Shown in pieces: positions 9,159-28,924 of a stretch of DNA of 64,000 nucleotides. The stretch comes from Thermococcus siculi (GTDB taxonomy: Archaea > Methanobacteriota_B > Thermococci > Thermococcales > Thermococcaceae): positions 682,001 to 746,000 of the forward strand of contig NZ_CP015103.1 of the NCBI RefSeq assembly GCF_002214505.1. Direction: 5' to 3'. The position numbers were made by a program, and so were the translations under genes. Each line of letters opens with the position of its first letter. The first letter of the stretch is position 1. The notes beneath the pieces were generated by a model that saw only the letters and a program-made list of their open reading frames with translations, made no database searches and was not told the origin of the DNA.

Positions 9159-9161
9159 AAT

Positions 9162-13910: not shown

Positions 13911-14969
13911 ATGAAGGCCCTCATCCTGTCTGGAGGCCACGGAACACGGCTCAGGCCTCTAACGTACTCCCAGCAGAAGCAGCTAATCCCCGTTGCCAAT
14001 AAGCCCGTGCTCTTCTACGCGATCGAGGATGTTATTGAGGCCGGAATATATGAGATTGGGATCATCGTTGGCCCCAACGCAGATCAGGTTAAGAGGACGG
14101 TCCTCGGCAGGGAGTGGGACGCTGAAATTGAGTTCATCTACCAGGGTGACCCCAGAGGATTGGCCCATGCAATACTAGTGGCTAGGGATTTTCTCGGTGA
14201 CGACGACTTCGTTATGTACCTTGGAGACAACATCCTCCGCGAGGGAATAGTGGAGCATCTAAACCACTTCAAGAGGGGAGACTTCGACGCCACCATACTC
14301 CTCCAGGAGGTTCCAAATCCTCAGCAGTTCGGCGTTGCGGAGCTGAGTGAAGATGGTAAAACCATCAGGCGTCTGGTCGAGAAACCCAAGGTCCCCCCAA
14401 GCAACCTGGCCCTCGTCGGGATATACTTCTTCAAGTCCATCATACACGAGGCGGTGAAAAACATAAAACCCTCTTGGAGGAATGAGCTTGAGATAACCGA
14501 TGCCATCCAGTGGCTTATCGACCATGGCTATAGAGTTGGGTGGACCAAGGTCACCGGGTGGTGGAAGGACACCGGAAAGCCCGAGGATATACTCGACGCC
14601 AACAGGCTCATACTGGACGACATAAAGGCTGATATTAGGGTCAGGACAAATGCCAGAATCCACGGCAGGGTAGTCATCGAAGAGGGCACCGTAATAGACG
14701 AGGACACTGTGATAAAGGGCCCCGTGGTCATCGGGAAGAACGTCAGGATAATAGACTCCTATATAGGTCCCTACACGAGCATCGGCGACAACGTCGTCAT
14801 TGAGAACACCGAGATCGAGGATTCCATAGTGCTTGAGGGAAGTGAGATAAGAAACGCAGGTAGGATAGTTGAAAGCCTCATTGGAAGAGGAGTGAAGATA
14901 ATAAACGGCACCTCCCATCCGTTCGGCAGAAAGCTGGTCATTGGCGACAACTCAAGGCTTATACTGTGA
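13911..14969 (+). CDS. rmlA: Glucose-1-phosphate thymidylyltransferase, long archaeal form
   Basis: 352 residues. Makes dTDP-glucose from dTTP and glucose-1-phosphate, the first step to dTDP-rhamnose. The nucleotidyltransferase signature GGHGTRLRPLTYSQQKQLIP opens the protein; MYLGDNIL and TGWWKDTGKPEDILDAN are conserved core elements. From about residue 245 there is a left-handed beta-helix of hexapeptide-like repeats (GRVVIEEGTVIDEDTVI), absent from the roughly 290-residue bacterial RmlA but usual in the long archaeal type. First gene of the rmlA-rmlB-(vapBC)-rmlC-rmlD operon. Confidence 0.93.
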   Translation: MKALILSGGHGTRLRPLTYSQQKQLIPVANKPVLFYAIEDVIEAGIYEIGIIVGPNADQVKRTVLGREWDAEIEFIYQGDPRGLAHAILVARDFLGDDDFVMYLGDNILREGIVEHLNHFKRGDFDATILLQEVPNPQQFGVAELSEDGKTIRRLVEKPKVPPSNLALVGIYFFKSIIHEAVKNIKPSWRNELEITDAIQWLIDHGYRVGWTKVTGWWKDTGKPEDILDANRLILDDIKADIRVRTNARIHGRVVIEEGTVIDEDTVIKGPVVIGKNVRIIDSYIGPYTSIGDNVVIENTEIEDSIVLEGSEIRNAGRIVESLIGRGVKIINGTSHPFGRKLVIGDNSRLIL

Positions 14970-14975
14970 GGTGGA

Positions 14976-15980
14976 ATGATGAGGGTCTTGGTAACCGGCG
15001 GAATGGGCTTCATAGGGAGCAATTTCATCCGCTACGTTCTGGAAAAGCACAATGACTGGGAAGTGATAAACCTGGATAAGCTTGGCTACGGATCAAACCC
15101 CGCGAACCTGAAGGACATTGAGAGTGATGATAGGTACACTTTTGTCAGAGGGGATATAACCGACTATGAACTCGTGAGTGATCTCGTTAAGAAAGTTGAT
15201 GGAATAGTACATTTTGCTGCTGAGAGCCATGTGGACAGGAGCATCTCAAGCCCGGAGCATTTTTTGAACAGCAACGTTATCGGAACTTACACCCTTCTGG
15301 AGGCAGTCAGGAAAGAAAATCCCCAAGTTAGGTTCGTCCACATAAGCACAGACGAGGTCTATGGCGACATTTTGAGGGGTTCCTTTACCGAAAACGACCG
15401 CTTGATGCCGTCATCACCGTATTCTGCCACAAAGGCTGCCAGTGACATGCTCGTCCTTGGATGGGCGAGGACTTACAAGCTCAATGCCTCCATAACGAGG
15501 TGTACCAACAACTACGGCCCCTACCAGTTCCCGGAGAAGCTCATCCCAAAGACCATAATAAGGGCGAGCATGGGGCTTAAGATCCCGATATACGGCACTG
15601 GCCAAAATGTCAGGGACTGGCTCTATGTGGAGGACCATGTGAGTGCCATTGAAGTGGTTCTCCTCAAAGGAGAGCCAAGGGAGATATACAACATCTCCGC
15701 TGGCGAGGAGAAGACAAACCTTGATGTTGTTAAAACCGTTCTAAACCTCATGAGCAAAGATGGGAGTTTAATTGAGTTCGTTGAGGACAGACCCGGCCAC
15801 GACCTTCGCTACTCTCTCGACTCTTGGAAGATAACCAGGGATCTTAAGTGGAGGCCGAAATACAGCTTTGAAAAGGGGATCAAGAAGACCGTCGAATGGT
15901 ACCTTGAAAACGAGTGGTGGTGGAGGCCTTTAGTCGATGAGAAAGTTCTCCACCCAACGCCCTGGAAGCTGGGATGGTAG
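14976..15980 (+). CDS. rmlB: dTDP-glucose 4,6-dehydratase
   Basis: 334 residues, extended short-chain dehydrogenase. NAD-binding GGMGFIGSNFIR near the N-terminus, active-site STDEVYG (Asp-Glu pair) and YSATKAASDM (catalytic Tyr and Lys). Converts dTDP-glucose to dTDP-4-keto-6-deoxyglucose. Six bases separate it from rmlA; GAGGTGGA is the ribosome site. Two adjacent ATGs (14976, 14979) could start it. Confidence 0.94.
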   Translation: MMRVLVTGGMGFIGSNFIRYVLEKHNDWEVINLDKLGYGSNPANLKDIESDDRYTFVRGDITDYELVSDLVKKVDGIVHFAAESHVDRSISSPEHFLNSNVIGTYTLLEAVRKENPQVRFVHISTDEVYGDILRGSFTENDRLMPSSPYSATKAASDMLVLGWARTYKLNASITRCTNNYGPYQFPEKLIPKTIIRASMGLKIPIYGTGQNVRDWLYVEDHVSAIEVVLLKGEPREIYNISAGEEKTNLDVVKTVLNLMSKDGSLIEFVEDRPGHDLRYSLDSWKITRDLKWRPKYSFEKGIKKTVEWYLENEWWWRPLVDEKVLHPTPWKLGW

Positions 15981-16025
15981 CAACAATTAAATATGTGTGT
16001 GCACATAAGTTACTTAGGTGATATT

Positions 16026-16625: not shown

Positions 16626-17186
16626 ATGCCTTTCGAGTTCAAGAGGCTGGAGATCCCCGACGTTATCCTGATAAAGCCTAAGGTCTTCGAGGACGAGAGG
16701 GGCTTCTTCATGGAGACATACAAGAAGTCTGACTTCGAGAAGGCTGGCATTAAAGGAGAGTTCGTACAGGACAACCATTCTCGCTCAAGATATGGCGTTC
16801 TGAGGGGCCTGCACTTCCAGAGGGGCCCTTATGCCCAGGCGAAGATAGTCAGGTGCGTAAGGGGAGTTATTTACGATGTTGCCGTCGACCTAAGAAAGGA
16901 TTCGCCAACTTTCGGGAAGTATGTTGGGGTTATCCTGTCAGAATTCAACAAATATCAGCTCTACATTCCTAGGGGTTTTGCCCATGGGTTCGTGGTTTTA
17001 GGTGATGTTGCAGAGGTTGTTTACAAGGTGGACAACGTCTACGCCCCTAGCCATGAAGGCGGCCTGATATGGAACGATCCCGATGTTGGGATTAAGTGGC
17101 CGGTTGAAGACCCGATAGTCTCACCGAAGGACCAGAGATGGCCGACTCTGAGGGAGTTAATTGAAAGGGATGAGGTGTTTAGGTGA
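16626..17186 (+). CDS. rmlC: dTDP-4-dehydrorhamnose 3,5-epimerase
   Basis: 186 residues, cupin fold. KVFEDERGFFMETY, QDNHSRSRYGVLRGLHFQ (catalytic His in the second half) and FAHGFVVLGDVAEVVYK are family hallmarks. The ORF extends upstream into vapC, but ATG 16626 with GAGGGGGT upstream gives the standard N-terminus MPFEFKRLEIPDV. rmlD follows with a six-base gap. Confidence 0.94.
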   Translation: MPFEFKRLEIPDVILIKPKVFEDERGFFMETYKKSDFEKAGIKGEFVQDNHSRSRYGVLRGLHFQRGPYAQAKIVRCVRGVIYDVAVDLRKDSPTFGKYVGVILSEFNKYQLYIPRGFAHGFVVLGDVAEVVYKVDNVYAPSHEGGLIWNDPDVGIKWPVEDPIVSPKDQRWPTLRELIERDEVFR

Positions 17187-17192
17187 GCACAA

Positions 17193-18056
17193 ATGAGAGT
17201 GGCAATGATTGGAGCGAATGGTCAATTAGGGACAGACCTCGTAGAGGTCTTCAGTAAGGATTCCGAATTTGATGTTGTTCCTTTAACCCACAAAGACCTC
17301 GACGTGACTGTCCCGGAAACTCTCGAAATCCTCAAGCGAGTGAAGCCAGACGTTATTATCAATACGGCCGCATACGTTAGGGTTGACGATGCCGAGCTTT
17401 ACCCAGAGAAAGCGTTTGCAGTGAATGCAATTGGGGCCTTGAACGTCGCAAGGGTTGCCAATGAAATTGGAGCAATCAACGTTTACATAAGCACGGATTA
17501 TGTTTTTGATGGCGAAAAGGAGGAGCCTTATATTGAGGAAGACACACCCAACCCAATAAACGTCTATGGAGTAAGCAAGTACGTAGGGGAAATTTTCACT
17601 AAGAATTACTCTCCAAAACACTATATAATCAGAGTGGCGAGCCTCTATGGAAAAGTCGGAGCAAGCGGCAAGGGTGGGAACTTCGTTGAGTGGATCATTG
17701 AGAAAGCAAAGCGTGGGGAAGAGCTTAGAATTGTGGACGACCAGTTCATGAGCCCAACGTATACCAAGGACGTTGCTAGAACTTTGAGGGAGTTTTTAAA
17801 GCTAAGGCCCGAGTTTGGGATCTATCACATGGTTAACGAGGGGTACTGTTCTTGGTATGAATTTGCTAAGGCAATATTCGAGATTTTGGGCTGGGAGGTT
17901 CAGATAAAGCCCATAAAGTCAAATGAACTCAACAGATTGGCGAAGAGACCGAGGTTCTCTGCGCTGAAGAATACGAAGCTGGAGAAATTAGGTTTAAGAA
18001 TGAGACCATGGAAAGAAGCATTAACGGGGTATTTAACGGAGAAGGGATATTTATAG
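17193..18056 (+). CDS. rmlD: dTDP-4-dehydrorhamnose reductase
   Basis: 287 residues. GANGQLGTDLVEVF (cofactor loop), STDYVFDG and YGVSKYVGE (catalytic Tyr and Lys) identify RmlD, which completes dTDP-L-rhamnose. GTGAG precedes ATG 17193. GC content drops along this gene towards the glycan island. Confidence 0.93.
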   Translation: MRVAMIGANGQLGTDLVEVFSKDSEFDVVPLTHKDLDVTVPETLEILKRVKPDVIINTAAYVRVDDAELYPEKAFAVNAIGALNVARVANEIGAINVYISTDYVFDGEKEEPYIEEDTPNPINVYGVSKYVGEIFTKNYSPKHYIIRVASLYGKVGASGKGGNFVEWIIEKAKRGEELRIVDDQFMSPTYTKDVARTLREFLKLRPEFGIYHMVNEGYCSWYEFAKAIFEILGWEVQIKPIKSNELNRLAKRPRFSALKNTKLEKLGLRMRPWKEALTGYLTEKGYL

Positions 18057-18106: not shown

Positions 18107-18842
18107 ATGAGCGAGGCAAGTCAGGTTTTGCAGAGGATTGCAAGGGGAACTGGGATTGTCTTTGCCGGAACAATAATTTCAATACTCTTCGGCTTTCTAA
18201 GCAGGGCAGTGATAGCGAGGTACTTTTCCACTGGAGAGTACGGTGTTTTTAATTTAGCCCTGACGGCGCTGAACATCGCTCTCGTTGTGGTGACTCTGGG
18301 CTTCCAGAACGCCCTGTCAAGGGAAGTTGCGTTCTATAGGGGAAAAAGAGCCTCCAAGAGTTAAGGGCCTCATTTGACGGCCTTGATTATCGTCGTGGCG
18401 AGCAGTTTTGTAATCACGGTGCTCCTGATGTTCGGCTCGGGCTTTATTGCCAGGGTGTTCAGCGAGGAGAGGCTGGTCTACGCATTAAAGATAGTTTCCC
18501 TAGCCCTGCCGTTTTGGGCCCTGGCGGATGTGGTAATTGCGGTTTCTAGGGGTTTCGGAAAGGTCAGGGAGCAGGTATTTTCAGAATATTGTTTTATCCA
18601 ACGCTGTTTATGCTCTCTTTAGCTATTAGTTTTGTCAGGAATAATCCCAGAGCTTGCACTTGAGAGTGCCAAATATATAGTTATGTTATTCTTATTTTAG
18701 TGGTATTTTGGGAGTTTATTTCCTCTTAGTTTTGCTTAGTAGGGGCGTTGATAGAGAAGATGTCGAGCTGTTTCTAGCAATAGAGAAGAGATTGGGAATT
18801 GATTTGATGGTAGTGAAGAAAATTTTAGGGAAGTTTGTTTAG
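18107..18842 (+). pseudogene. Decayed polysaccharide/oligosaccharide flippase (Wzx/MATE-like)
   Basis: The first 80 codons encode a typical flippase N-terminus (ARGTGIVFAGTIISILFGFL, ARYFSTGEYGVFNLALTAL). At about 18345-18375 the best continuation moves to another frame (EKEPPRVKGLI) and then returns, leaving a TAA at 18362 in the main frame: two compensating single-base indels. A third shift near 18570 is needed to read FRILFYPTLFMLSLAISFV. The middle of the protein is missing, and bases 18711-18842 encode only a flippase-like C-terminus (GVYFLLVLLSRG, DREDVELFLAIEKRLGIDL). About 245 codons remain of the usual 450-500. Three frameshifts plus a large deletion make function very unlikely. Confidence 0.85.
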
Positions 18843-18847
18843 TGTTT

Positions 18848-19672
18848 TTATCTATGCCAGCTGTCTAATCTTCTCCCAAGGAATTTTTCTAGTTCTTTGT
18901 TGTATGGTTTGAAGTATTTAATTAGTTTTTCTCTTGTATTTGGATTCATTGAAGGATAACCCGCTTTTAAATTTATACTATCGATAATATTATGTGCAAT
19001 TGTTAGGGGGATATATCTTTTTAAACGTTGGAGCTTCCAAAATTTTGGCGATTTCCCTACATATACTGAAGTGTGCCAGTTAGGGCTTTTAAAGTCGCTA
19101 TTAACACCCAAGAACTCAAAAACCACCCTCATAGTCCATTCAGGATATGCTTTTAGGTCTTCATTTATTAAAATTAACATCTGATCCCTAGAGAAGTATT
19201 TTCTGTATCTTTTAAGTTGCTCGATGTATTTTCCTCTATCGAGGTAGGAGTAATTCTGTTTAGCAAATATCGAGGCATCCTCAAGCCTCTCTCTTTCTTT
19301 TTTAATAGCTGCTTCGAAGGGCAACCACTCGTATCCAAGCTTGACTTCGTGCCAATAATGGGAATACGCCCTATCCACTGGGTTTCTAAGTATGAAAATG
19401 AGCTTAACATCAGGAAGAATTTCATAAATCCGCTCTGGTACTTCCTCCAAATACATATAAAATGGGGAAGCCTCACCAATAGCCCTATGTTGCGGAGTAG
19501 TACCTCTAAAGTGCTTTTCATACCAATTAATCCCTCGAGGATAGTTTAGATCAAAGTAATGCACTTCTTTTTCTCGGGGTAGAAATATCTCGGGATGTTC
19601 TTTTAAGTAAGTATATAATGCGGTAGTTCCTCCCTTTTGAGTTCCACAGATAATAAAATTGGGCAAAGTCAT
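18848..19672 (-). CDS. PAPS-dependent sulfotransferase domain protein
   Basis: 274 residues. The 5'-phosphosulfate loop CGTQKGGTTALYTYLKEHPE (residues 9-28) and the 3'-phosphate site FILRNPVDRAYSHYWHEVK (about 95-113) are the two PAPS-binding signatures of Golgi-type carbohydrate sulfotransferases. HYFDLNYPRGINWYEKHF matches the heparan-sulfate-type branch. No signal peptide, so cytoplasmic; it would sulfate a sugar of a lipid-linked glycan or polysaccharide. ATG 19672 has GGTGGT upstream. The gene is AT-rich like the rest of the island. Starts 12 bases after the stop of the AP-superfamily gene, so the two are probably cotranscribed. Confidence 0.88.
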   Translation of the reverse strand: MTLPNFIICGTQKGGTTALYTYLKEHPEIFLPREKEVHYFDLNYPRGINWYEKHFRGTTPQHRAIGEASPFYMYLEEVPERIYEILPDVKLIFILRNPVDRAYSHYWHEVKLGYEWLPFEAAIKKERERLEDASIFAKQNYSYLDRGKYIEQLKRYRKYFSRDQMLILINEDLKAYPEWTMRVVFEFLGVNSDFKSPNWHTSVYVGKSPKFWKLQRLKRYIPLTIAHNIIDSINLKAGYPSMNPNTREKLIKYFKPYNKELEKFLGRRLDSWHR

Positions 19673-19683
19673 ATACCACCACC

Positions 19684-21291
19684 TTAAATCTTGCCTTTTA
19701 GCTTTAGGTTTTTGATTGTCTTTTTGAGTTTTTCATCTTCACTTTTCTTCTCATAGTAGCTTGGATTCACATATCTTGGAGCCCTTCTGGCAAATTCCGA
19801 GTCTTCCTCAAAAATCTCCATTAAAACTCTCCCATCCATATCGCTTGGAATGGGTAGACCAAAGATGTGGAGGATTGTTGGGGCTATATCGTAGATTTTT
19901 GCATTAATTCTTTTGCCCTTTCTGATTCCTGGCCCATGGGCCAGGAAAATTCCATTTAGGCGATGGGAGCCGGTGTGTCTTGTTGAAAACGGTTTCTCCT
20001 CGAATAAGGGCCTATCAAAGTTGTCCTCGATTATAACACATCTCCAGTCATTTATCGTGAAAATTATGTCGGGTAAGAGATTGACTCTCTCCCCGGAGTA
20101 GAGTTTTTTGGGCTCATATATTTGAACCTCAACTTCTTTTCCAACGTCCTTGCTTATATTCTTCAAATCACCTACCAATCTGGCTTTGATTTCGTCTCTC
20201 TCTTGTTCATTGCTTGCATTTATATAGATGGCCCCGAATGGAATTGTATGTCCCAAACAGTAAGCTTTGCTTTTTTCAAAGTCAATTTCATCTGCAATGC
20301 TGGTTCTTAATGCATTACCGACACTTTTTCTGGTTTTAGTAGAGAATAATCTTCTTATTGGTGTTTTTGCCACAACTGTGGCAACTTTATATGCATGTTT
20401 TTTGATAAGCTTCTGGACGTTCCTTTTTCTGCGCATATATCCTTTCATAACGAGCCATTTTGCCAGGTTAAACGTTTGATCGTTGGGCCCAAACCCATGA
20501 TCCGAAACAAGGAAGACAATGGTGTCTTTCGGACTCATGTCCAAGATATTCCCGAGTGTCTTATCTATTCTTTGCCAGAATTTAATAAACTCTTCACGAT
20601 ATCTGGGTGAAACCTTCGAATCATATAAGGGATGGCTCTCGTCCATATGCCTCCACATTATGTGTTGAACCCAGTCAGTTGCTGAGAAAACCAAAAAGAG
20701 GGCATCCCACTCCTTGTTTTTGATCACATGATAAGCCCATTTTTCAAATCTATCCAGAAAATTGTTTAGGTCTTGTATAAACAGATCCAGATTATCGTAT
20801 TTTTTGTCATGATAATCAACGGATATCTGATATGGGCGGGCGATATTCTCAAGTTCTCTCTTTAAGGAGGGGGGGAATGTTATATCATCATCGGGAGCAG
20901 AACCCAAGCCGGAGATCATAAATCCATTCACTTTATATGGCGGAAACAGCATAGGATAATTGAAAATGCCTATTTTCTTATTCTCTTTACTTAGATAGTC
21001 CCAAAAGGAATGGCCTCTAAAATCCTCGGATGATGTTGGATAAAGCTTGAAATTAGGGTTTCGTCTGTTCAGAAAGTCTATTATCCCCGTCTTTCCAGGA
21101 GTTTTCCCCGTGGCTAAGGATAACCAAGCCCCCCCAGTTACTGGAGGGACAGTCGATTCTAAAACCCCGTAACTTCCAGTTTTAACTAATTTCTCTAATG
21201 TTGGGAGTTTTTTCTCTTCTATTAATGGTGTTAAAACCTCCCAAGTTGCTCCATCTAAGCCGATGACCAGTAGCTTTTGGAGTTTATCCAT
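19684..21291 (-). CDS. Alkaline-phosphatase-superfamily phosphodiesterase/nucleotide pyrophosphatase-like protein
   Basis: 535 residues. LLVIGLDGATWEVLTPL (first metal Asp), VPPVTGGAWLSLATGKTPG (nucleophile region), VFSATDWVQHIMWRHMD, FLVSDHGFGP (Asp-His metal ligands) and STRHTGSHRLNG (metal His) follow the order of type I phosphodiesterases. No signal peptide or clear membrane helix. The frame opens at 21324, but ATG 21291 has GGAGGCGGTGAT upstream. Cotranscribed with the sulfotransferase. It might act on a phosphodiester in a glycan or on the by-product PAP; substrate unknown. Confidence 0.85.
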   Translation of the reverse strand: MDKLQKLLVIGLDGATWEVLTPLIEEKKLPTLEKLVKTGSYGVLESTVPPVTGGAWLSLATGKTPGKTGIIDFLNRRNPNFKLYPTSSEDFRGHSFWDYLSKENKKIGIFNYPMLFPPYKVNGFMISGLGSAPDDDITFPPSLKRELENIARPYQISVDYHDKKYDNLDLFIQDLNNFLDRFEKWAYHVIKNKEWDALFLVFSATDWVQHIMWRHMDESHPLYDSKVSPRYREEFIKFWQRIDKTLGNILDMSPKDTIVFLVSDHGFGPNDQTFNLAKWLVMKGYMRRKRNVQKLIKKHAYKVATVVAKTPIRRLFSTKTRKSVGNALRTSIADEIDFEKSKAYCLGHTIPFGAIYINASNEQERDEIKARLVGDLKNISKDVGKEVEVQIYEPKKLYSGERVNLLPDIIFTINDWRCVIIEDNFDRPLFEEKPFSTRHTGSHRLNGIFLAHGPGIRKGKRINAKIYDIAPTILHIFGLPIPSDMDGRVLMEIFEEDSEFARRAPRYVNPSYYEKKSEDEKLKKTIKNLKLKGKI

Positions 21292-21367
21292 ATCACCGCC
21301 TCCAGGAGGTAAAATCAAGAACAAAGCTTTTAAATTTTTGGCTCTTCAATATTTTGGGTGTAATTTG

Positions 21368-22423
21368 GTGTTTCCCCGTGTTTCAATAATAATCCTCAAC
21401 TGGAACGGTTGGAGGGATACGATTGAGTGTTTGGAGTCGCTTTATAGGATAACTTATCCCAATTATGACGTGATTATGGTGGATAATGGCTCCAAGGATG
21501 ATTCTATTCAGAAGATAAAAGAGTACGCCGAGGGAAGAATTAGAGTTAATTCGAAGTTTTTTGAATACACTCGGAGTAATAAACCAATTAAGGTTTTTGA
21601 GATTAGTGAGGGCAATGCAAGAGAAGGAAAGTTTGACAAACCTCTTTATGAAAAGTATGGTCCGGACAGGCGGATGATTTTAATCAAAAACAAAGACAAC
21701 TATGGATTTGCTGGGGGAAATAACGTGGGAATAAAATTCGCTCTAAGTGTTTTAAATCCTGAGTATATCTTGCTTTTAAATAATGACGTTGTAGTTGACA
21801 AAGAGTTCTTAGAAGAATTAGTGAAAGTCGCAGAAAGCGACAAACAAATCGGAATTGTGGGTCCAAAAATTTATTATCATGATCATGTAAGGGGGGATAA
21901 TATCGTTCATTCATTAGGTGTAAAAATAGATTTATGGAAAGGACTGGCTTATCATATTAGAAAAGACGATGGAACAAGAATTTCAAATTGTGATTGTGTT
22001 GAGGGTTCGTGCATGTTGATTAAAGCAAATGCCCTCAAAGAAATGGGACTTTTTGATGAAGCCTATTTTGCATATTGGGAAGAGACGGATTTATGTGTTA
22101 GATTTATTAGTAAGGGTTATAGAATTGTAGTAAACAAAAATGCGAAAATCTGGCATAAAATCTCGTGGAAAAAAGAAGTAAAGCTTTTTAATTTATGTTT
22201 AATGCTCCGTAATAATATTACTTTTATGAGAAAATATGCAAATGTTATTCAAAATATCTTCTTTTATTTCTACTTTACTAGTAGGGTACTCCCATTTTTT
22301 ACATTCAGGGCATTCATGAAGTATCCACTAGAAACAACAATTCTTATATCTAACATCTTAGCTTTTATGATTGGGAAACAACAGGTAAGTTGTCATCAAT
22401 TCTTAAAAAGTCTAAAAGAGTGA
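21368..22423 (+). CDS. Family 2 glycosyltransferase
   Basis: 351 residues. VSIIILNWNGWRDTIECLES and VIMVDNGSKDDSIQKI form the GT-A nucleotide-sugar site; LLLNNDVVVDKEFLEELV holds the D-x-D-like metal site, and CVEGSCMLIKANALKEMG plus DEAYFAYWEETDLCVRF (catalytic region) match rhamnosyltransferase-like GT2 enzymes. C-terminal hydrophobic stretch at about 300-340. The frame is open to 21263; GTG 21368 is chosen because GGGTG lies about seven bases upstream and the domain starts there. The only plus-strand gene within the minus-strand glycan island. Confidence 0.85.
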   Translation: MFPRVSIIILNWNGWRDTIECLESLYRITYPNYDVIMVDNGSKDDSIQKIKEYAEGRIRVNSKFFEYTRSNKPIKVFEISEGNAREGKFDKPLYEKYGPDRRMILIKNKDNYGFAGGNNVGIKFALSVLNPEYILLLNNDVVVDKEFLEELVKVAESDKQIGIVGPKIYYHDHVRGDNIVHSLGVKIDLWKGLAYHIRKDDGTRISNCDCVEGSCMLIKANALKEMGLFDEAYFAYWEETDLCVRFISKGYRIVVNKNAKIWHKISWKKEVKLFNLCLMLRNNITFMRKYANVIQNIFFYFYFTSRVLPFFTFRAFMKYPLETTILISNILAFMIGKQQVSCHQFLKSLKE

Positions 22424-22446: not shown

Positions 22447-23277
22447 TTATTCATTTAGAAGTTCAAATAATCCCGCTATAGTACCGTACAACAAAGCAAA
22501 CCCCCAAACCAGATAGTATGGAATACACTTTATACATTTTTTGCACTTTAATGCTTGGAGAATTCCATAAGCCATGATTCCAAAAGGGGCCACTAATAGT
22601 TTCCATGCTCGATGCTTAACCATAGCCCGTGCGTTCCCTTTCCCATACCATACTCTTTGTTTTACAAAGCTCTTAAGTGACGCTCGGTGATAATGATAGG
22701 CAACTTTCTTTGAAACCCCAAATTTGTGGACTTTACCAACTCTATGCCAGAATTCTGTATCCTCCGCTGCGTACTTCATAAACGGATCGAAACGATACTT
22801 TAAAACAATCTCTCTTTTTACAACGCAGACAATAGTCCCAATGTATCTCCTTTCGCCAGGATGGTTAAACCTGCTTTCCCAGTGAATATTTTCACAGTAT
22901 TCCCATAGGTTTTTATTGGGTCGCGGATCTATCAGCTGTGCATGTATTGCGACCCAACCATTTTGTTCCATTTCTTTAACCATGTTAATAAGTATGTTCT
23001 CTTTTGGAAGTTCAGTATCAGAATCTACGTATGCAATATATTTTCCCCTAGCCTTTTTAGCTCCAAGATACCTTGCGTATCCTAAACCTTTTCCCTCATC
23101 CGAGTATATTTTATCTGTATACTTTCTGGCAATCTCAACGGTTCTATCTGTGGAATTTCCGTCCACGACTATTATCTCGAGTATTCCGTTTTGATTTTTT
23201 ACTGATCTTAAGGCTCTTTCTATCTCATCTTCTCTATTCTTCACGCACATAACAACGGAAATTTGCTGGTTATTCAT
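22447..23277 (-). CDS. Family 2 glycosyltransferase
   Basis: 276 residues. ISVVMCVKNREDEIERALRS, EIIVVDGNSTDRTVEIA and KYIAYVDSDTELP (D-x-D) are GT2 hallmarks; AAEDTEFWHRVGKVHKFG is the E-D region near the catalytic base. C-terminal hydrophobic segments (about residues 225-270) suggest membrane association. The start directly adjoins the stop of the polytopic protein gene. Last gene of the 28.9-22.4 kb minus-strand glycan operon. Confidence 0.88.
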   Translation of the reverse strand: MNNQQISVVMCVKNREDEIERALRSVKNQNGILEIIVVDGNSTDRTVEIARKYTDKIYSDEGKGLGYARYLGAKKARGKYIAYVDSDTELPKENILINMVKEMEQNGWVAIHAQLIDPRPNKNLWEYCENIHWESRFNHPGERRYIGTIVCVVKREIVLKYRFDPFMKYAAEDTEFWHRVGKVHKFGVSKKVAYHYHRASLKSFVKQRVWYGKGNARAMVKHRAWKLLVAPFGIMAYGILQALKCKKCIKCIPYYLVWGFALLYGTIAGLFELLNE

Positions 23278-24960
23278 TCAAGGCCCCCCATATATCTCAA
23301 AGGTACTTGATACCTTAGGGTAGTGATTAGACGAGAAATAGATTCTAGAACTTTTGACTTTTAGGTCTATTATGTTTATATCTTTTCCAGTAAAAAACAC
23401 ATAACCATCAATTCTCCTCGATGAGAGTACAATAGTAACCACACTATTTTCTAAGCCTTTTGGATTTTTCAAAGAGTCTATTGGTAAAATAGAATACGGA
23501 TTTGCTAAGTATTTAAAGTCCCACAGGGCATCTGGAATCGTGTAAAATTTCGAAGGAATATAAACTGAAGTATAAGAAATCCCTGCAATCTCGTTGGGGG
23601 CTACATAATCATATGACATGTTACCATAGGTACATAATATGCTCAATAACAGTAAGATTGGTAATGTTGTAATAAGTATCTTTTTGAACTTCAAATTTTT
23701 AAGAGCAAGTGCCACAAAGATTGCTAAAATATATCTACTTCCTGCCAGGATTCTTGAGGGTATTTCCCCGCTATAGTTTCCAAACAATGCTGGAATCACG
23801 AGGATGTATGATGCTAATATCAATGCCAAGAGTAGTACTGGCCTATCACTTTTTCTTGTTTTTAAGAATTTTTCAAGAAAATCCCTTAGAACGATTAAAA
23901 CCGCTATTAAGCTAATCCCGACAATTGAGTAAGAAAAGTACATTTTTATTTGTAATACTTTTGAATGATGGGTTATACCCATTTGAGCAACTTCAGTCCA
24001 TTTCTCCACAGCTCCTGTTGCTATCATGAACTCCACTAGGCTATTCAGACGTTGTTTAAAGAGATTAGCTGAATAGGTGTGTCCAAGTGTCCAGTATACC
24101 TGAAAAATTAAGAAAAGCAACAGGAGAGTCATGCTCATTCTTTTTGTCTTTTCATCCTTGATTATAAAGGTGGAGAAAACTATAGAATCTACAATTGTAA
24201 CTGCCCAGAGAATGCTTGTCATAAAATGAGTGAAAACTAGGACTCCTGTAGATAACAATAATAAACTTACAACTTTTAAGTACTGTGCATTATATCCCAG
24301 ATGTGCCCTAAATAGAAAATAAACACTGGCCATTAGTATCAATGATGCTAGACCCCCAGGAACAAACCAATTAAACCCATAGAAACTTGCCATAAAAAAC
24401 ATGACACCTAAAATTGAGTTAGTACGACTATTTGTGAGATCCTTCATCAGTGAATATATAAGTGGGAGTACTGTTAGGTAATATAAAACGGGAGTCATCA
24501 GCAAAATGTAGACCCCAAGCCTAGTTATCATCTCTGATATTGCACCCAAAAACATTATCCCTGGCCAAGTTTGATATGATAACGTAGGTATTTCTGGAGC
24601 TGCATGGCCTGTTTGGATAATATAATCAACATGGCCATAAACTCTATACACAAATGGGAAAATAGGAAGCTTTACAAACATTTGAGGTACAAAAATAAGC
24701 AAGCCCAGATAAAGGATGGCTACATAAGAATGTCTAATTGTGTTTTTATGTTGTAATCCAAAAATTGCAAGTGCTGAAAAAACGAATATATCCAATACTC
24801 CTAAAATTCCATAGGAATATACGCCGCCATATTTTCCAATTTTTAAGTTCTCATTCAACAGCGTCACATTAAAAATAAATATCGCAATAGAGAGGAAAAA
24901 TTTCATGATGACATTTGTACGTCGATCAGACAAGCTAATATTATTAGCAACAGTTTTCAT
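23278..24960 (-). CDS. Polytopic membrane protein, possibly GT-C glycosyltransferase-like
   Basis: 560 residues with about 12-13 membrane helices and a C-terminal soluble tail (from about residue 455). After the second or third helix an external loop with YRVYGHVDYIIQTGHA and SYQTWPGIMFL looks like the acidic loop of GT-C enzymes that use polyprenyl-phosphate sugars, but I cannot assign a family. GGGGGAATTT precedes ATG 24960. Its place among GT2 genes, with the flippase upstream of the island dead, allows polymerase, ligase or GT-C transferase roles. Strongly AT-rich. Confidence 0.7.
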   Translation of the reverse strand: MKTVANNISLSDRRTNVIMKFFLSIAIFIFNVTLLNENLKIGKYGGVYSYGILGVLDIFVFSALAIFGLQHKNTIRHSYVAILYLGLLIFVPQMFVKLPIFPFVYRVYGHVDYIIQTGHAAPEIPTLSYQTWPGIMFLGAISEMITRLGVYILLMTPVLYYLTVLPLIYSLMKDLTNSRTNSILGVMFFMASFYGFNWFVPGGLASLILMASVYFLFRAHLGYNAQYLKVVSLLLLSTGVLVFTHFMTSILWAVTIVDSIVFSTFIIKDEKTKRMSMTLLLLFLIFQVYWTLGHTYSANLFKQRLNSLVEFMIATGAVEKWTEVAQMGITHHSKVLQIKMYFSYSIVGISLIAVLIVLRDFLEKFLKTRKSDRPVLLLALILASYILVIPALFGNYSGEIPSRILAGSRYILAIFVALALKNLKFKKILITTLPILLLLSILCTYGNMSYDYVAPNEIAGISYTSVYIPSKFYTIPDALWDFKYLANPYSILPIDSLKNPKGLENSVVTIVLSSRRIDGYVFFTGKDINIIDLKVKSSRIYFSSNHYPKVSSTFEIYGGP

Positions 24961-24972
24961 AAATTCCCCCCA

Positions 24973-26076
24973 TTATTTCTCTTTGTTTCTTATTTTAAGC
25001 TTGACTATGTATACATCCTTTAAAGCTTTAATTATAACTTTAATTTGCTTGATGCCATCCTTGGGACTTATCAATAAAACTGGGATCCTACTTAACACCA
25101 ATCCCGTTGTGGCCCATAAGTGGGCGATATAATTTCCATTTATGCTTGCGATATGGTGTGTACTTATAACCAACGCTTTGAGCCTCTGTTCCGAGGAAAG
25201 ACGTCGAACACTTGGAGCTCTCAAGTGCATAAGTTTTAGTTTAGACGACAAATAGATTTTATACTTTTTTATTACCCGGGCTGACCACTCTAAATCCTCA
25301 TTTAGTGCATATTTACTAAATTTTTCCAAATTTTCATCAAATTTAAATTCTCTAAAAACTTTCCGTTTGCAAATAAAATTACCTCCCTGAACCCACTCAA
25401 CTTCATAAAGTCTGTTGTTTTTTTCAATCTTTGTTATGTCTGGGTATTCACTCCGATATCCCGAGGGGAGTATCTTCCCTTTTCTCCAAGATTCCCAAAG
25501 AAAGAGGGACTTTATAAAGTTTTTAATCTTTCTGAGGAGTTGCCCCAGAAGGATTTTCCTTGTAGGCCCTAAAAGTAGAATTCTTTCTCTATATTTATTT
25601 TTTAACTCATTTATTATTTCATTAATAAATTTTTTATCTAGATTTTTGAGTATATATACATAGTCCCCCCACTTTAGCCAGTAGATAGAGTTCAGGTCAA
25701 CGATGTCAAAAGTATATCCACTCACGATGTCTAATCCATGATTTAGAATTAGATCTATGGCATTTTCTATGTATTTTTCCTCTAGGACTACATCATCCTC
25801 TAAGAACACAAGAACTTCGCCCCTGCTATACTCAAACCCAGTGTTTCTCTTTTTTGCAGTCCCTTCGTTTTTGGTAAGAATAAAATTTACCCTATACTTT
25901 AAATCCTCTAAGAGTAGGTTTTTTATAAACTCTTGGGTTTGTACATCATCTTGATCTCCTACAATAATAACTTCATCAGGAACAACAGTCTGATTTTCTA
26001 ACGACTCTAAGACTCTCTGGAGGTATTCAATTCGATTCCTAGTGGGGATTATAACTGAGACTTTTACTCTTTCCAT
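24973..26076 (-). CDS. Family 2 glycosyltransferase
   Basis: 367 residues. VSVIIPTRNRIEYLQRVLES, EVIIVGDQDD and EVLVFLEDDVVLEEKYIENA (metal site) identify the GT-A domain. VEWVQGGNFICKRKVF and YALNEDLEWSARVIKKY lie at the acceptor/catalytic end, and the C-terminus (RAPSVRRLSSEQRLKALVIS) resembles galactofuranosyl/rhamnosyl transferases. It overlaps the Alg14-Alg13-like gene stop by one base; GGGGTG is the ribosome site. Confidence 0.87.
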   Translation of the reverse strand: MERVKVSVIIPTRNRIEYLQRVLESLENQTVVPDEVIIVGDQDDVQTQEFIKNLLLEDLKYRVNFILTKNEGTAKKRNTGFEYSRGEVLVFLEDDVVLEEKYIENAIDLILNHGLDIVSGYTFDIVDLNSIYWLKWGDYVYILKNLDKKFINEIINELKNKYRERILLLGPTRKILLGQLLRKIKNFIKSLFLWESWRKGKILPSGYRSEYPDITKIEKNNRLYEVEWVQGGNFICKRKVFREFKFDENLEKFSKYALNEDLEWSARVIKKYKIYLSSKLKLMHLRAPSVRRLSSEQRLKALVISTHHIASINGNYIAHLWATTGLVLSRIPVLLISPKDGIKQIKVIIKALKDVYIVKLKIRNKEK

Positions 26077-27041
26077 TAATTGTACACCCCTAGTACCTCT
26101 TTTAAAATCTGTATAAATCTCTTGTTCACAATGGCAGACTTCAAATATTTCCTTTTGGGGTTTGATATTAATGAAACTAAGACTTCTCTAAGTTCGCTCT
26201 CATTAGTAGTAACTTTAACCAGCCCTTCTTTTTCAAGCTTCCTTGAGAACATTAATTGATGATCGTTAATTGCCTCGTTAAATTTCTTTAACCTTGGAAA
26301 TGCAATAGCAGATGACCCAAGAGTGAGACCATCAATTAAACTTATCGCAGCTTGAGAAACAACGATCTTAGACCTTTTAATAATCTCTTTAATAGTCGCG
26401 TATTCCGCAAACTCGAACCACTTAGATTTTTTTGGTTTATACTGAGTCTTTCCAATCTGCATTATCACAGTATAACTGATGCTTTCTACAATTTTGTCCA
26501 TAGCTCTTACCAATCGTTCAAACCCTTGATAGTGGGTTCCTGTCATGACAAAGATCTGGTTCTTTTTATCTTTTAGGTTGATCTTTATTTTTGTTTTCTT
26601 GAACAAACCTCCAACGTATTTCGCCTTTTTCCCGTAGTGCTGAAGCATCTCTGGCCACAAAACAAAGAAATGATCTGAAATTGGATAAACAAGCTTACCA
26701 GTTACGGTTGGCTCGTCAATTCTGGTGTAACATTCAATAAAGATTGTTTTTATTCCTAAGAGCTTCCCCAGATAGAAGAATGGAATCGCGATCTCAGCAC
26801 CATTACTGATGATAACATCTGGTTTCTCTTGTACCATGATTCTTATTATCTCCAGAACATGAGTTATAACCCTAAAAGGATTCTCTCCAAAATTTGGAAA
26901 GAGATATTTTCTATACGGAAGCACTCTTGTCCTCGGATGATCATATGTTATAAAGAACACGTCATGGCCTTTAAATGCGTCCATCAAGTAGAGCATTTCC
27001 GTTAGATGTCCTCCATGAGAACAAACTAAAGCAATCTTCAT
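26076..27041 (-). CDS. Fused Alg14-Alg13-like UDP-sugar glycosyltransferase
   Basis: 321 residues. The N-terminal half (KIALVCSHGGHLTEMLYLMD, EKPDVIISNGAEIAIPFFYL, TIFIECYTRID) matches Alg14/PssD/EpsE, the membrane-anchoring acceptor-side subunit. The C-terminal half (IFVMTGTHYQGFERLVRAMD, VSQAAISLIDGLTLGSSAIAF) matches Alg13/PssE, the UDP-sugar-binding side of GT28. In yeast and many bacteria these are separate proteins; here one chain carries both. ATG 27041 overlaps the previous stop (ATGA), giving MKIALV. Likely adds the second sugar to a polyprenyl-PP-linked glycan. Confidence 0.85.
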   Translation of the reverse strand: MKIALVCSHGGHLTEMLYLMDAFKGHDVFFITYDHPRTRVLPYRKYLFPNFGENPFRVITHVLEIIRIMVQEKPDVIISNGAEIAIPFFYLGKLLGIKTIFIECYTRIDEPTVTGKLVYPISDHFFVLWPEMLQHYGKKAKYVGGLFKKTKIKINLKDKKNQIFVMTGTHYQGFERLVRAMDKIVESISYTVIMQIGKTQYKPKKSKWFEFAEYATIKEIIKRSKIVVSQAAISLIDGLTLGSSAIAFPRLKKFNEAINDHQLMFSRKLEKEGLVKVTTNESELREVLVSLISNPKRKYLKSAIVNKRFIQILKEVLGVYN

Positions 27042-28033
27042 CTTGCAACCACCTTGTAGTTCCATTCATATATCTTATTTGCAATTTTCTTGAGTGCAAT
27101 GTCGAGGGATGTGTATGAAAGTTGGTCTTCAGGTATATAGACATCTAGGTTCTTTATTATGTTTCTTTCTGTCCTTATCTTTTCAGTTTCTGTACGAACA
27201 CCATCGACGAAACCTTTTAACTTAAATTTTATTCCTGAAGGACCCATCAATACAGCATATCCCCAGGTTAAGATTTCAGTCATGATGAGTGCAGGGAGTA
27301 TCGATAGTATTTGTCTTAAACCCAGATACTTTCGCAGGATAATATACCTACCTTTTTCAAGGTGATAGATCTTCCACGGAGAAACATTGAGGGAGTAATC
27401 ATGGTAGACTATCGCTGTGGGGACGTAAAGTATTCTGAATCCCATTGCATGTGCCCTCCAGGAGAATTCGCCGTCTTCATTATAAGCCAGAAAATTCTCA
27501 TCGAAACCCCCCAGTTCGAGGTATTCATCTCTTCTAATAGCGAAGCACGCCCCCGAAATGCCACTTAGATACTTTGGAGTATCATACTTCTCAGGGGACT
27601 CCAAGTACCCTCTGGTGAATGTGAGTCCCGTAAAGTGCACAATATTGCCAACTGTGTTTATTGCAGAGCCATCATAAAGAAGTATTTTGGGGGTTGTAAT
27701 CAGACGTCTGTTTTTGGCTAACGGTCTAATAAGTTCTTCCAGCCAATTTCTTTCGACCTTTGTATCGGGGTTTAAAACTACCACATATTCTCCTCTGGCA
27801 TGTTTAACACCTAAGTTAATGCCCCCGCCGTATCCTAAGTTGTTGGAGCTCCGTATCACTTTCACACTTGGAAAATTCTCCTCAATAAATTCAGTAGTCC
27901 CGTCTGTTGAGCCGTTGTCGACCACAATGACTTCAAGGGGATCGTTACTTAAGACCGATTTTAGACCGTCCATCATATAGTTCTTGTGATTATACGTAAC
28001 TATGATCACGCTGGCTTTACTCGATAGCCCCAT
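27038..28033 (-). CDS. Family 2 glycosyltransferase (rhamnosyltransferase-like)
   Basis: 331 residues. ASVIIVTYNHKNYMMDGLKS, EVIVVDNGSTDGTTEFI, NNLGYGGGINLG and YVVVLNPDTKVERNWLEELI are the WbbL/rhamnosyltransferase type of GT2; SGACFAIRRDEYLELGGFDE and AYNEDGEFSWRAH close the active site. With the rml operon nearby, dTDP-rhamnose is the obvious donor, by inference. Three bases after the preceding gene and ATGA-overlapping the next. Confidence 0.87.
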   Translation of the reverse strand: MGLSSKASVIIVTYNHKNYMMDGLKSVLSNDPLEVIVVDNGSTDGTTEFIEENFPSVKVIRSSNNLGYGGGINLGVKHARGEYVVVLNPDTKVERNWLEELIRPLAKNRRLITTPKILLYDGSAINTVGNIVHFTGLTFTRGYLESPEKYDTPKYLSGISGACFAIRRDEYLELGGFDENFLAYNEDGEFSWRAHAMGFRILYVPTAIVYHDYSLNVSPWKIYHLEKGRYIILRKYLGLRQILSILPALIMTEILTWGYAVLMGPSGIKFKLKGFVDGVRTETEKIRTERNIIKNLDVYIPEDQLSYTSLDIALKKIANKIYEWNYKVVAR

Positions 28034-28036
28034 GCT

Positions 28037-28924
28037 TCACTCCCTCACCATCTTTGCCAGCACGTTCAGCGTTAATCCCGCAATGAAAAGTTGAATCCCT
28101 ATGATCGTGAATATCCCCGCTCCAACGGCCTGGGTCATGTACACCCTTCCCTCGCTGAACGGCTCCATTGCCCAGACGAACAATCCTCCAGCTATAATGA
28201 ACGACACCAGCGCCAGTGTGCTGAAGAGCAGCAGGGGTCTTTTATACCCTATTAACCCCACGATTCCCGCCAGGACCTCGAGGCCATGGGTCACCGGATT
28301 CTTCTTGTGCTTGTTGGGCACGTCATAGCGGACGTTTATTGGAACCTCTTTGATCCTCACACCCTTCTCCGAGAGGTGGGCCAGCATGTCGCTTTCAACT
28401 GTGTATCCGTTACTGTTCATACCCAGTATCTCCTCCACGACCTTTATTCTCATCGCTCTAAATCCAGACTGGGAATCGGTTATCCTGAGGTCACCATCGA
28501 CGACCATATTGGTCGTTGAGTTCAGAACCCAGAGGCCGAACCTTCTGTAGAGAGGTATGCTCTTCTTGGCTCCGTTGAGGAACCTGGAGCCTATTACCAG
28601 ATCCGCCTCGTCGTTCAGTATCGGCTTGAGGAGCTTTGGTATCTCATTGGGGTCGTGCTGCCCGTCTGCATCGATGGTAACAATGACATCGTATTCCATG
28701 CCTACTGCGTACTCAAAGGCCGTCTTTAGAGCCCTGGCTTTCCCCATGTTTTGTGGGTGCTTTATTACCCGCGCCCCCGAAGAGAGTGCTATCTCGTACG
28801 TTCCGTCCACGCTTCCGTCGTCCACAACGAGAACATCACCGTACTTCTTAGATAGAAGAACCACTGAGCCTATGGTAAGGGCCTCATTGTACGCTGGAAT
28901 TGCAACCAGGATCTTCCGCTCCAT
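28037..28924 (-). CDS. Polyprenyl-phosphate glycosyltransferase (dolichyl-P-mannose/glucose synthase-like)
   Basis: 295 residues. ILVAIPAYNEALTIGSVVLL, VLVVDDGSVDGTYEIA, MGKARALKTAFEYA and DVIVTIDADGQHDPNEIPKL (D-A-D metal site) are typical of DPM1/GtrB GT2 enzymes; VIGSRFLNG and ITDSQSGFRAM follow. Two C-terminal membrane helices (about 230-252 and 265-288) anchor it. First gene of the minus-strand glycan operon, with GGGGGAAGGGG upstream of ATG 28924. GC-richer than the genes after it. Confidence 0.92.
   Translation of the reverse strand: MERKILVAIPAYNEALTIGSVVLLSKKYGDVLVVDDGSVDGTYEIALSSGARVIKHPQNMGKARALKTAFEYAVGMEYDVIVTIDADGQHDPNEIPKLLKPILNDEADLVIGSRFLNGAKKSIPLYRRFGLWVLNSTTNMVVDGDLRITDSQSGFRAMRIKVVEEILGMNSNGYTVESDMLAHLSEKGVRIKEVPINVRYDVPNKHKKNPVTHGLEVLAGIVGLIGYKRPLLLFSTLALVSFIIAGGLFVWAMEPFSEGRVYMTQAVGAGIFTIIGIQLFIAGLTLNVLAKMVRE

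What the first reader, a model, noticed from the sequence alone, without database searches (positions are those of the whole stretch)
18848..21291. Carbohydrate sulfotransferase paired with a phosphodiesterase in a hyperthermophilic archaeon
Both PAPS-binding signatures of Golgi-type sulfotransferases are intact, and the upstream AP-superfamily gene is 12 bases away. This predicts a sulfated sugar in the surface glycan. The partner might process a phosphodiester or the by-product PAP, an untested idea.
Basis: partly seen in the sequence, partly recalled or inferred. Interest (0 to 1): 0.52.

Follow-up and report, generated by a model that had tools for sequence, protein, structure and literature searches.

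The report
Sulfotransferase in an archaeal glycan island
A heat-loving archaeon carries an intact sugar-sulfating enzyme beside an alkaline-phosphatase-type enzyme, and comparison with its relatives suggests that the second enzyme may be another, unrelated kind of sugar-sulfating enzyme rather than a clean-up phosphodiesterase.

Summary
Window 18848-19672(-) encodes a sulfotransferase of the heparan-sulfate 3-OST/NDST type (PF00685; model Z 25-31 to that group). The stop of an alkaline-phosphatase(AP)-superfamily gene, 19684-21291(-), lies 11 bases upstream.

The AP partner is the surprise. In the 57 of 94 Thermococcales genomes with a strong APS-kinase match, all 58 loci have an AP-superfamily gene within 2 kb. 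APs with the window protein's C-terminal tail occur in 26 genomes, all with APS kinase. In these PAPS-making genomes the gene facing the glycan flippase's 3' end is AP-superfamily or a PAPS-type sulfotransferase in 39 of 42 cases (35 without sub-threshold matches), as if the two were interchangeable. In Halobacterium, AP-superfamily proteins were shown genetically to sulfate N-glycans (PMC11980604). I therefore favour the AP as a second glycan-decorating, probably PAPS-using, transferase. Against this: a complete two-metal phosphodiesterase site, hydrolases as nearest solved relatives, and no biochemistry.

The tight ST-AP pairing here is secondary: a flippase remnant marks where the sulfotransferase now sits.

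The parts
18848..19672 (-). PAPS-dependent carbohydrate sulfotransferase (PF00685, 3-OST/NDST-like), 274 aa
19684..21291 (-). AP-superfamily protein (PF01663), 535 aa, complete two-metal site D13 T52 D206 H210 D264 H265 H443, no hydrophobic segment by a hydropathy scan
19687..19902 (-). conserved C-terminal tail of the AP protein (residues 464-535), 73% mean pairwise identity against 36% for the rest (18 sequences)
18107..18628 (+). decayed polysaccharide flippase (matches residues 4-175 of 512, two stops); no match to the remainder, where the ST now sits
11467..13809 (+). oligosaccharyltransferase (STT3/AglB)-like protein, weak profile matches
13911..14969 (+). rmlA
   Evidence: TIGR01208 over cut-off
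14976..15980 (+). rmlB
   Evidence: TIGR01181 over cut-off
16629..17186 (+). rmlC
   Evidence: TIGR01221 over cut-off
17193..18056 (+). rmlD
   Evidence: TIGR01214 over cut-off
21362..22423 (+). family 2 glycosyltransferase
22447..23277 (-). family 2 glycosyltransferase
23278..24960 (-). 560-aa hydrophobic protein without Pfam match (candidate polymerase or GT-C, inference)
24973..26076 (-). family 2 glycosyltransferase
26076..27065 (-). Alg14/GT28-type glycosyltransferase
27038..28033 (-). family 2 glycosyltransferase
28037..28924 (-). AglJ-like dolichyl-phosphate glycosyltransferase (below the AglJ cut-off)

Best explanation
The island builds a lipid-linked, probably rhamnose-containing surface glycan, and the two genes decorate it on the cytosolic side. 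Step 1 (genes shown): ATP sulfurylase and APS kinase, encoded at 533 kb, make PAPS; a DHH phosphoesterase probably recycles PAP (inferred). Step 2 (fold and motifs shown, activity inferred, about 0.9): the window sulfotransferase moves the sulfuryl group of PAPS to a sugar hydroxyl, with E36 as base. Step 3 (inferred, about 0.45): the AP-superfamily neighbour is a second glycan-decorating transferase, most likely a sulfotransferase of the AP fold working through its Thr52 nucleophile at the metal site, like Agl30/Agl31 of Halobacterium, rather than a dedicated phosphodiesterase. Step 4 (shown): the ST lies between the AP gene and a flippase remnant, in a position that in relatives is filled interchangeably by AP-type or PAPS-type sulfotransferase genes.
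For: ST: PF00685 E 2.6e-21; phmmer to 3rnl 1e-38 and 3-OST-5 9e-27; model pLDDT 96.5, Z 31.5/28.7/27.6 to 3rnl/3-OST-3/NDST1 against at most 16 for the other sulfotransferase types listed. PAPS: APS kinase and ATP sulfurylase over curated cut-offs. AP tied to sulfation: AP gene within 2 kb at 58 of 58 strong APS-kinase loci in 57 of 94 genomes; tail-APs (E under 1e-10) in 26 genomes, all 26 with APS kinase, and in high-quality genomes 25 of 51 against 0 of 23; PF00884 (E under 1e-10) in 36 of 51 against 1 of 23, and the PF00884-type proteins in the fetched loci have Thr instead of Cys, 33 of 33. Of 51 high-quality PAPS-making genomes, 32 had no sulfotransferase recognised in the three order-wide searches; 28 of these 32 have tail-AP or PF00884 genes. 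Flippase slot: 39 of 42 convergent neighbours in PAPS-making genomes are AP-superfamily (28) or PAPS-type ST (11), 35 without four sub-threshold matches; tandem neighbours 6 of 18. AP-superfamily glycan sulfotransferases are shown genetically in Halobacterium (PMC11980604). A hydropathy scan finds no membrane segment in the window AP and ST, 33 SulfT and 29 APs, so a soluble donor fits.
Against: The window AP profile is closest to ENPP4, phosphonoacetate hydrolase and ENPP1, not to sulfatases, and keeps the whole two-metal phosphoesterase site. It is PF01663, whereas Agl31 is described as arylsulfatase-like; Agl30/31 sequences were not compared. In Halobacterium some sulfation remained without both Agl30 and Agl31. 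The co-occurrence is confounded by islands: the flippase itself tracks APS kinase (46 of 51 against 7 of 23). Within flippase-bearing high-quality genomes the tail-AP contrast is 23 of 46 against 0 of 7 (p 0.015), and genomes are not independent. Four genomes in many contigs (G046, G051, G065, G091; two of them in the high-quality set) have AP-family matches (E under 1e-30) but no strong APS kinase; G091's is a close, broken relative of the window AP (77-79%), and G083 and G091 have an ST. AP relatives on haloarchaeal plasmids sit in glycan clusters with no PAPS gene listed within about 12 kb in 5 of 5 regions read (the gene tables are incomplete). Of the seven high-quality flippases without APS kinase only one has a convergent neighbour at all, so the slot has little negative control. 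Nothing here shows sulfate on any Thermococcales glycan.
Confidence: 0.5

Rival explanations
1. The AP protein is a nucleotide phosphoesterase that services the sulfation pathway: it hydrolyses PAP, or surplus APS/PAPS, and is kept near PAPS-using genes for that reason.
For: ENPP-type nucleotide pyrophosphatases are among its closest solved relatives; a paralogue lies beside APS kinase at 58 of 58 loci; the metal ligands are kept.
Against: A DHH phosphoesterase is already in the operon. It does not explain why the same flippase-facing slot holds either an AP-type gene or a bona fide sulfotransferase, nor why the AP catalytic parts are so divergent (36% mean identity).
Confidence: 0.25
2. The AP protein is a glycan-side phosphodiesterase or a phospho-substituent transferase (LtaS/EptA-like chemistry) that has nothing to do with sulfate; it travels with PAPS genes because both sit in exchangeable glycan islands.
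For: The flippase also tracks APS kinase; haloarchaeal relatives lie in glycan clusters without nearby PAPS genes; in G019, which lacks APS kinase, the slot holds a polysaccharide pyruvyl transferase, so the slot may be for any decoration.
Against: 0 of 7 flippases of high-quality genomes lacking APS kinase have an AP or ST as next gene, convergent or tandem; a paralogue is fixed in the PAPS operon.
Confidence: 0.2
3. The window island is decaying: the flippase is a remnant, so the ST and AP may not act on a displayed glycan, and the neighbourhood is a by-product of recombination.
For: Flippase remnant with two stops; the flippase of G070 is truncated too; low-GC island, 0.35-0.41 against 0.44-0.60 around it; AP tails look exchanged between species.
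Against: ST, AP and the glycosyltransferase genes are open; an intact flippase exists at 530 kb in the same genome; catalytic residues are kept.
Confidence: 0.12
4. The PAPS genes serve sulfate assimilation through PAPS reductase, as was proposed for Palaeococcus pacificus, and sulfation is marginal.
For: PMC6981617 lists sat, cysC and a cysH with a distant locus number in a Thermococcales genome (passage). Presence of cysH in the window's own genome was not tested.
Against: Of 29 ST loci, 23 share a contig with APS kinase and 17 of these lie within 20 kb of it; PAPS-type STs occur in 19 of 51 PAPS-making and 0 of 23 other high-quality genomes. The operon genes of this genome's PAPS locus were identified and hold no reductase.
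Confidence: 0.05

Closest known systems
Heparan sulfate 3-O-sulfotransferases / NDST sulfotransferase domain (PF00685)
   Same: Fold (Z 24.8-28.7), PAPS loop, 3'-phosphate motif, Glu position (which Glu is the base is recalled).
   Different: Archaeal protein without a hydrophobic anchor; acceptor unknown, presumably a lipid-linked glycan.
Agl30 (VNG1056C) and Agl31 (VNG1057C), AP-superfamily sulfotransferases of Halobacterium salinarum N-glycosylation
   Same: AP superfamily, glycan gene cluster in an archaeon; Agl31 is soluble too (PMC11980604 abstract and sections 17, 22, 23).
   Different: Described as sulfatase-like; the window AP is PF01663. Its sulfation activity is unproven and no direct sequence comparison was made.
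ENPP nucleotide pyrophosphatases/phosphodiesterases and phosphonoacetate hydrolase (PF01663)
   Same: Best solved-structure matches by profile; the AP-superfamily metal and nucleophile residues are kept (their equivalence to ENPP ligands is recalled).
   Different: Those are hydrolases, ENPPs secreted or membrane-bound (recalled); the window protein has no membrane segment, is genomically tied to PAPS genes and flippases, and has a conserved C-terminal tail.
Formylglycine carbohydrate sulfatases (PF00884)
   Same: The SulfT relatives found in the same slot match them, in several entries over most of the length.
   Different: 33 of 33 SulfT proteins in the fetched loci have Thr at the Cys position and 0 of 33 have C/S-x-P-x-R.

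Membership tests
PF00685 carbohydrate (3-OST/NDST-like) sulfotransferase: window ST | profile match over the curated cut-off | tested here: met
   76.6 bits against 22
PF00685 carbohydrate (3-OST/NDST-like) sulfotransferase: window ST | PAPS 5'-phosphosulfate loop, 3'-phosphate motif (R96, S104), catalytic Glu (E36) | tested here: met
   G10, G15, E36, R96, S104 invariant in 38 sequences, T16 nearly so
PF00685 carbohydrate (3-OST/NDST-like) sulfotransferase: window ST | 3-OST/NDST fold rather than TPST/SULT | tested here: met
   pLDDT 96.5; Z 24.8-31.5 to 3rnl/3-OST/NDST, at most 16.0 to other types listed
PF00685 carbohydrate (3-OST/NDST-like) sulfotransferase: window ST | PAPS supply in the genome | tested here: met
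   ATP sulfurylase and APS kinase over cut-offs
PF00685 carbohydrate (3-OST/NDST-like) sulfotransferase: window ST | transfer of sulfate to a glycan | not testable with these tools
   needs enzyme assay or glycan MS
PF01663 phosphodiesterase/nucleotide pyrophosphatase: window AP | profile match and complete two-metal site with Thr nucleophile | tested here: met
   131.7 bits against 23; D13 T52 D206 H210 D264 H265 H443
PF01663 phosphodiesterase/nucleotide pyrophosphatase: window AP | fold of ENPP/phosphonoacetate hydrolase | tested here: inconclusive
   model pLDDT 60, TM-scores of about 0.4 or less in the rows shown
PF01663 phosphodiesterase/nucleotide pyrophosphatase: window AP | phosphodiesterase or pyrophosphatase activity | not testable with these tools
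   needs enzyme assay
Agl30/Agl31-type AP-superfamily glycan sulfotransferase: window AP | AP-superfamily core | tested here: met
   PF01663; profile-profile match to the PF00884-type SulfT group, probability 96%, E 1.6e-9
Agl30/Agl31-type AP-superfamily glycan sulfotransferase: window AP | sulfatase-like (PF00884) subfamily, as described for Agl31 | tested here: not met
   window AP matches PF01663 and no PF00884 at E 0.001; so it is not filed as a member, only as possibly working alike
Agl30/Agl31-type AP-superfamily glycan sulfotransferase: window AP | direct sequence or structural similarity to Agl30/31 | not tested
   their sequences were not fetched; no search was made for them
Agl30/Agl31-type AP-superfamily glycan sulfotransferase: window AP | glycan loses sulfate when the gene is deleted | not testable with these tools
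   experiment
Formylglycine sulfatase: window AP and SulfT relatives | Cys/Ser in C/S-x-P-x-R at the nucleophile | tested here: not met
   Thr52 in the window AP; Thr in 33 of 33 SulfT, 0 of 33 with the motif in the first 110 residues

The most novel reading that the evidence does not exclude
Thermococcales, and possibly archaea more widely, sulfate their surface glycans with two unrelated sulfotransferase superfamilies that swap places at one flippase-linked slot: classical PAPS-fold enzymes and cytosolic, Thr-nucleophile, metal-dependent AP-superfamily enzymes (PF01663 and Cys-less PF00884). One AP member is a fixed part of the PAPS operon. The window holds one of each side by side.
Probability: 0.4. 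Interest if true: 0.78.

Novelty: new variant of a known kind. Interest (0 to 1): 0.6.

Why it matters
PAPS synthesis in one sulfur-respiring hyperthermophile was read as sulfate assimilation (PMC6981617, passage). In the loci mapped here the genes form a sulfation-like module (ATP sulfurylase, DHH, AP, APS kinase, TauE, then often a flippase and glycan genes), which predicts sulfated surface glycans across the 57 genomes with a strong APS kinase. If AP-superfamily proteins are sulfotransferases, many archaeal genes now called alkaline phosphatase, phosphodiesterase or sulfatase are misnamed, and a fold known for removing sulfate and phosphate was recruited for adding sulfate. A pair with one of each type in tandem gives a clean genetic test.

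Tried and rejected
Two viral-contig scans for more AP homologues gave one locus, too few to redo the model.

AP tail as a pure docking domain: the last 72 residues are 73% identical on average against 36% for the rest. Fourfold-site identity is 50.0% in the tail, 34.3% in the rest and 40.7-42.4% in ATPS/APSK/operon AP, so exchange between species explains part of it; base composition differs between these genes and was not corrected for. Flippase and SulfT6 show no such steep 3' rise.

Recent bacterial donor of the ST: not seen; the tree puts it with archaeal sequences (80/84, bootstrap not settled). That tree holds 72 of the 80 loci (8 fell to a length filter) and leaves out the other Thermococcales ST families.

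PAPS-type ST as the only PAPS consumer: not favoured, since 32 of 51 high-quality PAPS-making genomes had none recognised. That count used PF00685, PF13469 and an alignment of ST family B made here. PF03567 was not searched order-wide, yet one such gene turned up in a slot, as did a sub-threshold PF00685 match in G073; fragments with stops in G008 were not counted. So 32 is an upper bound.

Rows dropped: G078 (APS-kinase fragment with a stop) was not counted as having APS kinase; a second fragment of the G056 gene on another contig (E 6e-21) was not counted as a locus; 1 of 73 flippase hits (G051, 3' end at a contig end) was not fetched; broken and partial flippase copies, the window's among them, were left out of the slot survey. 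High-quality means at least 90% complete and at most 5% contaminated (74 of 94). The greedy ORF caller misread the operon AP of L031.

Paper searches that found nothing on an AP-PAPS or Thermococcales sulfotransferase link: three listings, judged irrelevant from the listing; no papers. Recalled, from no call: roles of the PAPS motifs and catalytic Glu, ENPP ligand logic, LtaS/EptA chemistry, DHH as PAP phosphatase.
Full report
WHAT IS THERE. The two genes exist as described. The ST (18848-19672, -) matches PF00685 at 2.6e-21 and PF13469 at 4e-13; the AP gene (19684-21291, -) matches PF01663 at 6e-38. The gap is 11 bases. Around them lie rmlA, B, C and D, all over curated cut-offs, an STT3-like protein, four PF00535 family 2 transferases, an AglJ-like transferase, an Alg14/GT28 protein and a hydrophobic 560-aa protein. 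GC is 0.35-0.41 from 18 to 28 kb against 0.44-0.60 in the rest of 9-40 kb, the mark of an exchanged island.

THE SULFOTRANSFERASE. Its model (38 sequences) has pLDDT 96.5. VIA-align gives Z 31.5 to 3rnl, 28.7 to 3-OST-3 and 27.6 to NDST1; the next types listed (olefin synthase domain, TPST, SULT) stay at 16 or less. E36, R96 and S104 are invariant in the 38 sequences. In the tree it lies with sequences of Thermoplasmatales, Thermococcus, G075, Acidilobaceae and the second-locus ST3 (support 80/84, rough). Of the 80 best loci kept from the species-genome scan (420 relatives found), 13 have APS kinase or ATP sulfurylase within the fetched flanks (my count from the listing), which fits PAPS use.

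PAPS SUPPLY. The genome (one contig, 2.03 Mb; the window is 682001-746000) has APS kinase at 532727-533173. Around it (L012) are, in order: ST, short AP, ST, flippase, TauE, APS kinase, AP paralogue, DHH, PIN, ATP sulfurylase. ATP sulfurylase and APS kinase pass NCBIfam cut-offs; DHH, TauE, flippase and AP paralogue pass Pfam's; the PIN label is by eye. The genome has three PF00685 proteins.

AP GENES FOLLOW PAPS GENES. In 94 Thermococcales genomes, 57 have a strong APS kinase (E under 1e-20). All 58 such loci have an AP-superfamily gene within 2 kb (from coordinates); at the second locus of G009 the AP has a stop. APs with the window's C-terminal tail occur in 26 genomes (E under 1e-10), all with APS kinase. 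In the 74 high-quality genomes the split is 25 of 51 against 0 of 23 (Fisher 9e-6). PF00884 proteins (E under 1e-10) occur in 39 genomes, 37 with APS kinase, and split 36 of 51 against 1 of 23. PAPS-type STs occur in 24 genomes, 22 with APS kinase, and split 19 of 51 against 0 of 23. Against the rule: G091, a draft at 80% completeness, has a broken close relative of the window AP (77-79%) and an ST but no strong APS kinase; G083, another draft, has an ST; G046, G051 and G065 have AP-family matches of E under 1e-30. Whether contig ends explain these was not checked. Control: the flippase also splits 46 of 51 against 7 of 23. Within flippase-bearing genomes the tail-AP split is 23 of 46 against 0 of 7 (p 0.015) and PF00884 33 of 46 against 0 of 7 (p 5e-4). 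Relatedness of the genomes was not corrected for. Of 13 single-contig genomes with a tail-AP, 9 have it within 30 kb of APS kinase; the window's own is 168 kb away. Of 29 ST loci (hits merged), 23 share a contig with APS kinase and 17 of these lie within 20 kb.

THE FLIPPASE SLOT. I took 72 of 73 flippase hits that span most of the protein, whatever their neighbours, and read what lies past the 3' end. In APS-kinase genomes (62 flippases) 42 have a convergent neighbour, 18 a tandem one, 2 none. The 42, from 35 genomes, are: window-type AP 11, SulfT6 13, SulfT41 2, ST families A and B 9, unlabelled 7. Pfam on six of the seven unlabelled found one Sulfotransfer_2 over the cut-off, one sub-threshold Sulfotransfer_1, two sub-threshold Sulfatase, one amine oxidase and one without match; a 69-aa ORF was not scanned. 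One SulfT6 (L235) is also under Pfam's cut-off, while two others weak by my models (L228, L234) pass it. So 39 of 42 are AP-superfamily (28) or PAPS-type ST (11), 35 if the four sub-threshold cases are dropped. Tandem neighbours: 6 of 18, all SulfT41. Fisher 4e-6 for 39 and 5e-4 for 35 of 42. In genomes without strong APS kinase (10 flippases), two drafts (G066, G091) have a SulfT6 and an ST in the slot. Of the seven high-quality ones none has an AP or ST next door: a convergent pyruvyl transferase (G019) and, in tandem, a pyruvyl transferase, a methyltransferase, an M50 peptidase, a family 2 transferase and two UDP-sugar dehydrogenases. Only one of the seven is convergent, so this control is small. 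The slot looks like a place for glycan-decorating enzymes in which AP-type and PAPS-type genes replace each other. This is my main ground for reading the AP as a transferase.

THE WINDOW'S SLOT. In G047 the AP relative (80%) faces an intact flippase (L066). In G070 (81%) and in the window the flippase is a remnant: residues 4-175 with two stops in the window, 3-256 in two pieces in G070. DNA identity to G047 and G070 holds to the AP stop codon and drops at the ST. The ST thus sits in the slot and the tight pairing is secondary. ST-AP pairs do recur: G075 (ST 61%, AP 31%, 10-base gap), G020 with another ST, two Thermoproteota contigs (L107, L108), and PF00884-type gene plus ST in L111 and L113. 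Of the 80 ST loci, 7 have an AP-superfamily gene within the flanks. Archaeon HR01 (L182) repeats the AP-ATP sulfurylase-APS kinase neighbourhood outside Thermococcales.

CHEMISTRY. The AP keeps D13, T52, D206, H210, D264, H265 and H443; in 29 related sequences the last five never vary, and the first two vary only by missing N-termini or one T-to-S. SulfT proteins have Thr, never Cys, at the nucleophile (33 of 33 in the fetched loci). Neither group shows a membrane segment in a hydropathy scan, so a cytosolic donor such as PAPS is plausible. Against this, the AP profile's best solved relatives are ENPP4, phosphonoacetate hydrolase and ENPP1.

WHAT IS KNOWN. In Halobacterium salinarum, Agl30 and Agl31, assigned to the AP-like core superfamily, are needed for most N-glycan sulfation (a basal level remained without both) and add sulfate to the Haloferax glycan when expressed there (PMC11980604; I read the abstract, sections 17, 22 and 23, and passages). 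Its text has no hit for PAPS, adenosine, catalytic or active site. A Palaeococcus study lists sat, cysC and cysH as assimilation genes (PMC6981617, one passage). A review of polysaccharide sulfotransferases mentions archaeal sulfated glycans; it has no hit for alkaline phosphatase or Thermococc- (PMC11625862, passages). An S-layer review gave no sulfate data for Thermococcales in the passages seen (PMC5744192).

VERDICT. ST: a new archaeal member of a known enzyme kind, about 0.9. AP: about 0.45 second sulfotransferase or PAPS-using decorating transferase, 0.25 nucleotide phosphoesterase of the pathway, 0.2 other glycan phospho-enzyme. The general pattern is more interesting than the pair itself.

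Noticed in passing
window 18107-18628 (+): Remnant of a polysaccharide flippase with two stops; an intact paralogue lies at 530 kb of the same genome.
   Followed up: yes
window 19687-19902 (-): The last 72 aa of window-type APs are far more alike between species (73%) than the rest (36%), partly by exchange of DNA; it could be a recombination anchor or a docking tail.
   Followed up: partly
L012 8286-9164 (-), also L022, L023, L024, L027, L031, L097, L100: A short (about 290 aa) AP-superfamily protein with an ST in the same locus, of unknown role.
   Followed up: no
L033 and L034 (genome G009): Two PAPS operons in one genome; the AP next to the second has an in-frame stop.
   Followed up: no
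window 15993-16612 (+): A small ORF plus a PIN-domain gene inserted between rmlB and rmlC.
   Followed up: no
window 29832-31404 (+): AbiEi/AbiEii-type toxin-antitoxin pair beside the glycan island.
   Followed up: no
window 5478-9167 (-) and 4659-5447 (+): Large GH57/CBM53/glucodextranase-C protein with a hydrophobic C-terminus, next to an exosortase-type membrane protein.
   Followed up: no
haloarchaeal plasmids (L185-L189): Window-type AP relatives (26-29% identity in the rows listed) lie in glycan clusters of haloarchaeal plasmids, in two of five regions with a gene annotated as sulfatase.
   Followed up: partly
L253 (genome G019) and L260 (genome G058), no strong APS kinase: The gene next to the flippase 3' end is a polysaccharide pyruvyl transferase instead of an AP or ST.
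   Followed up: no
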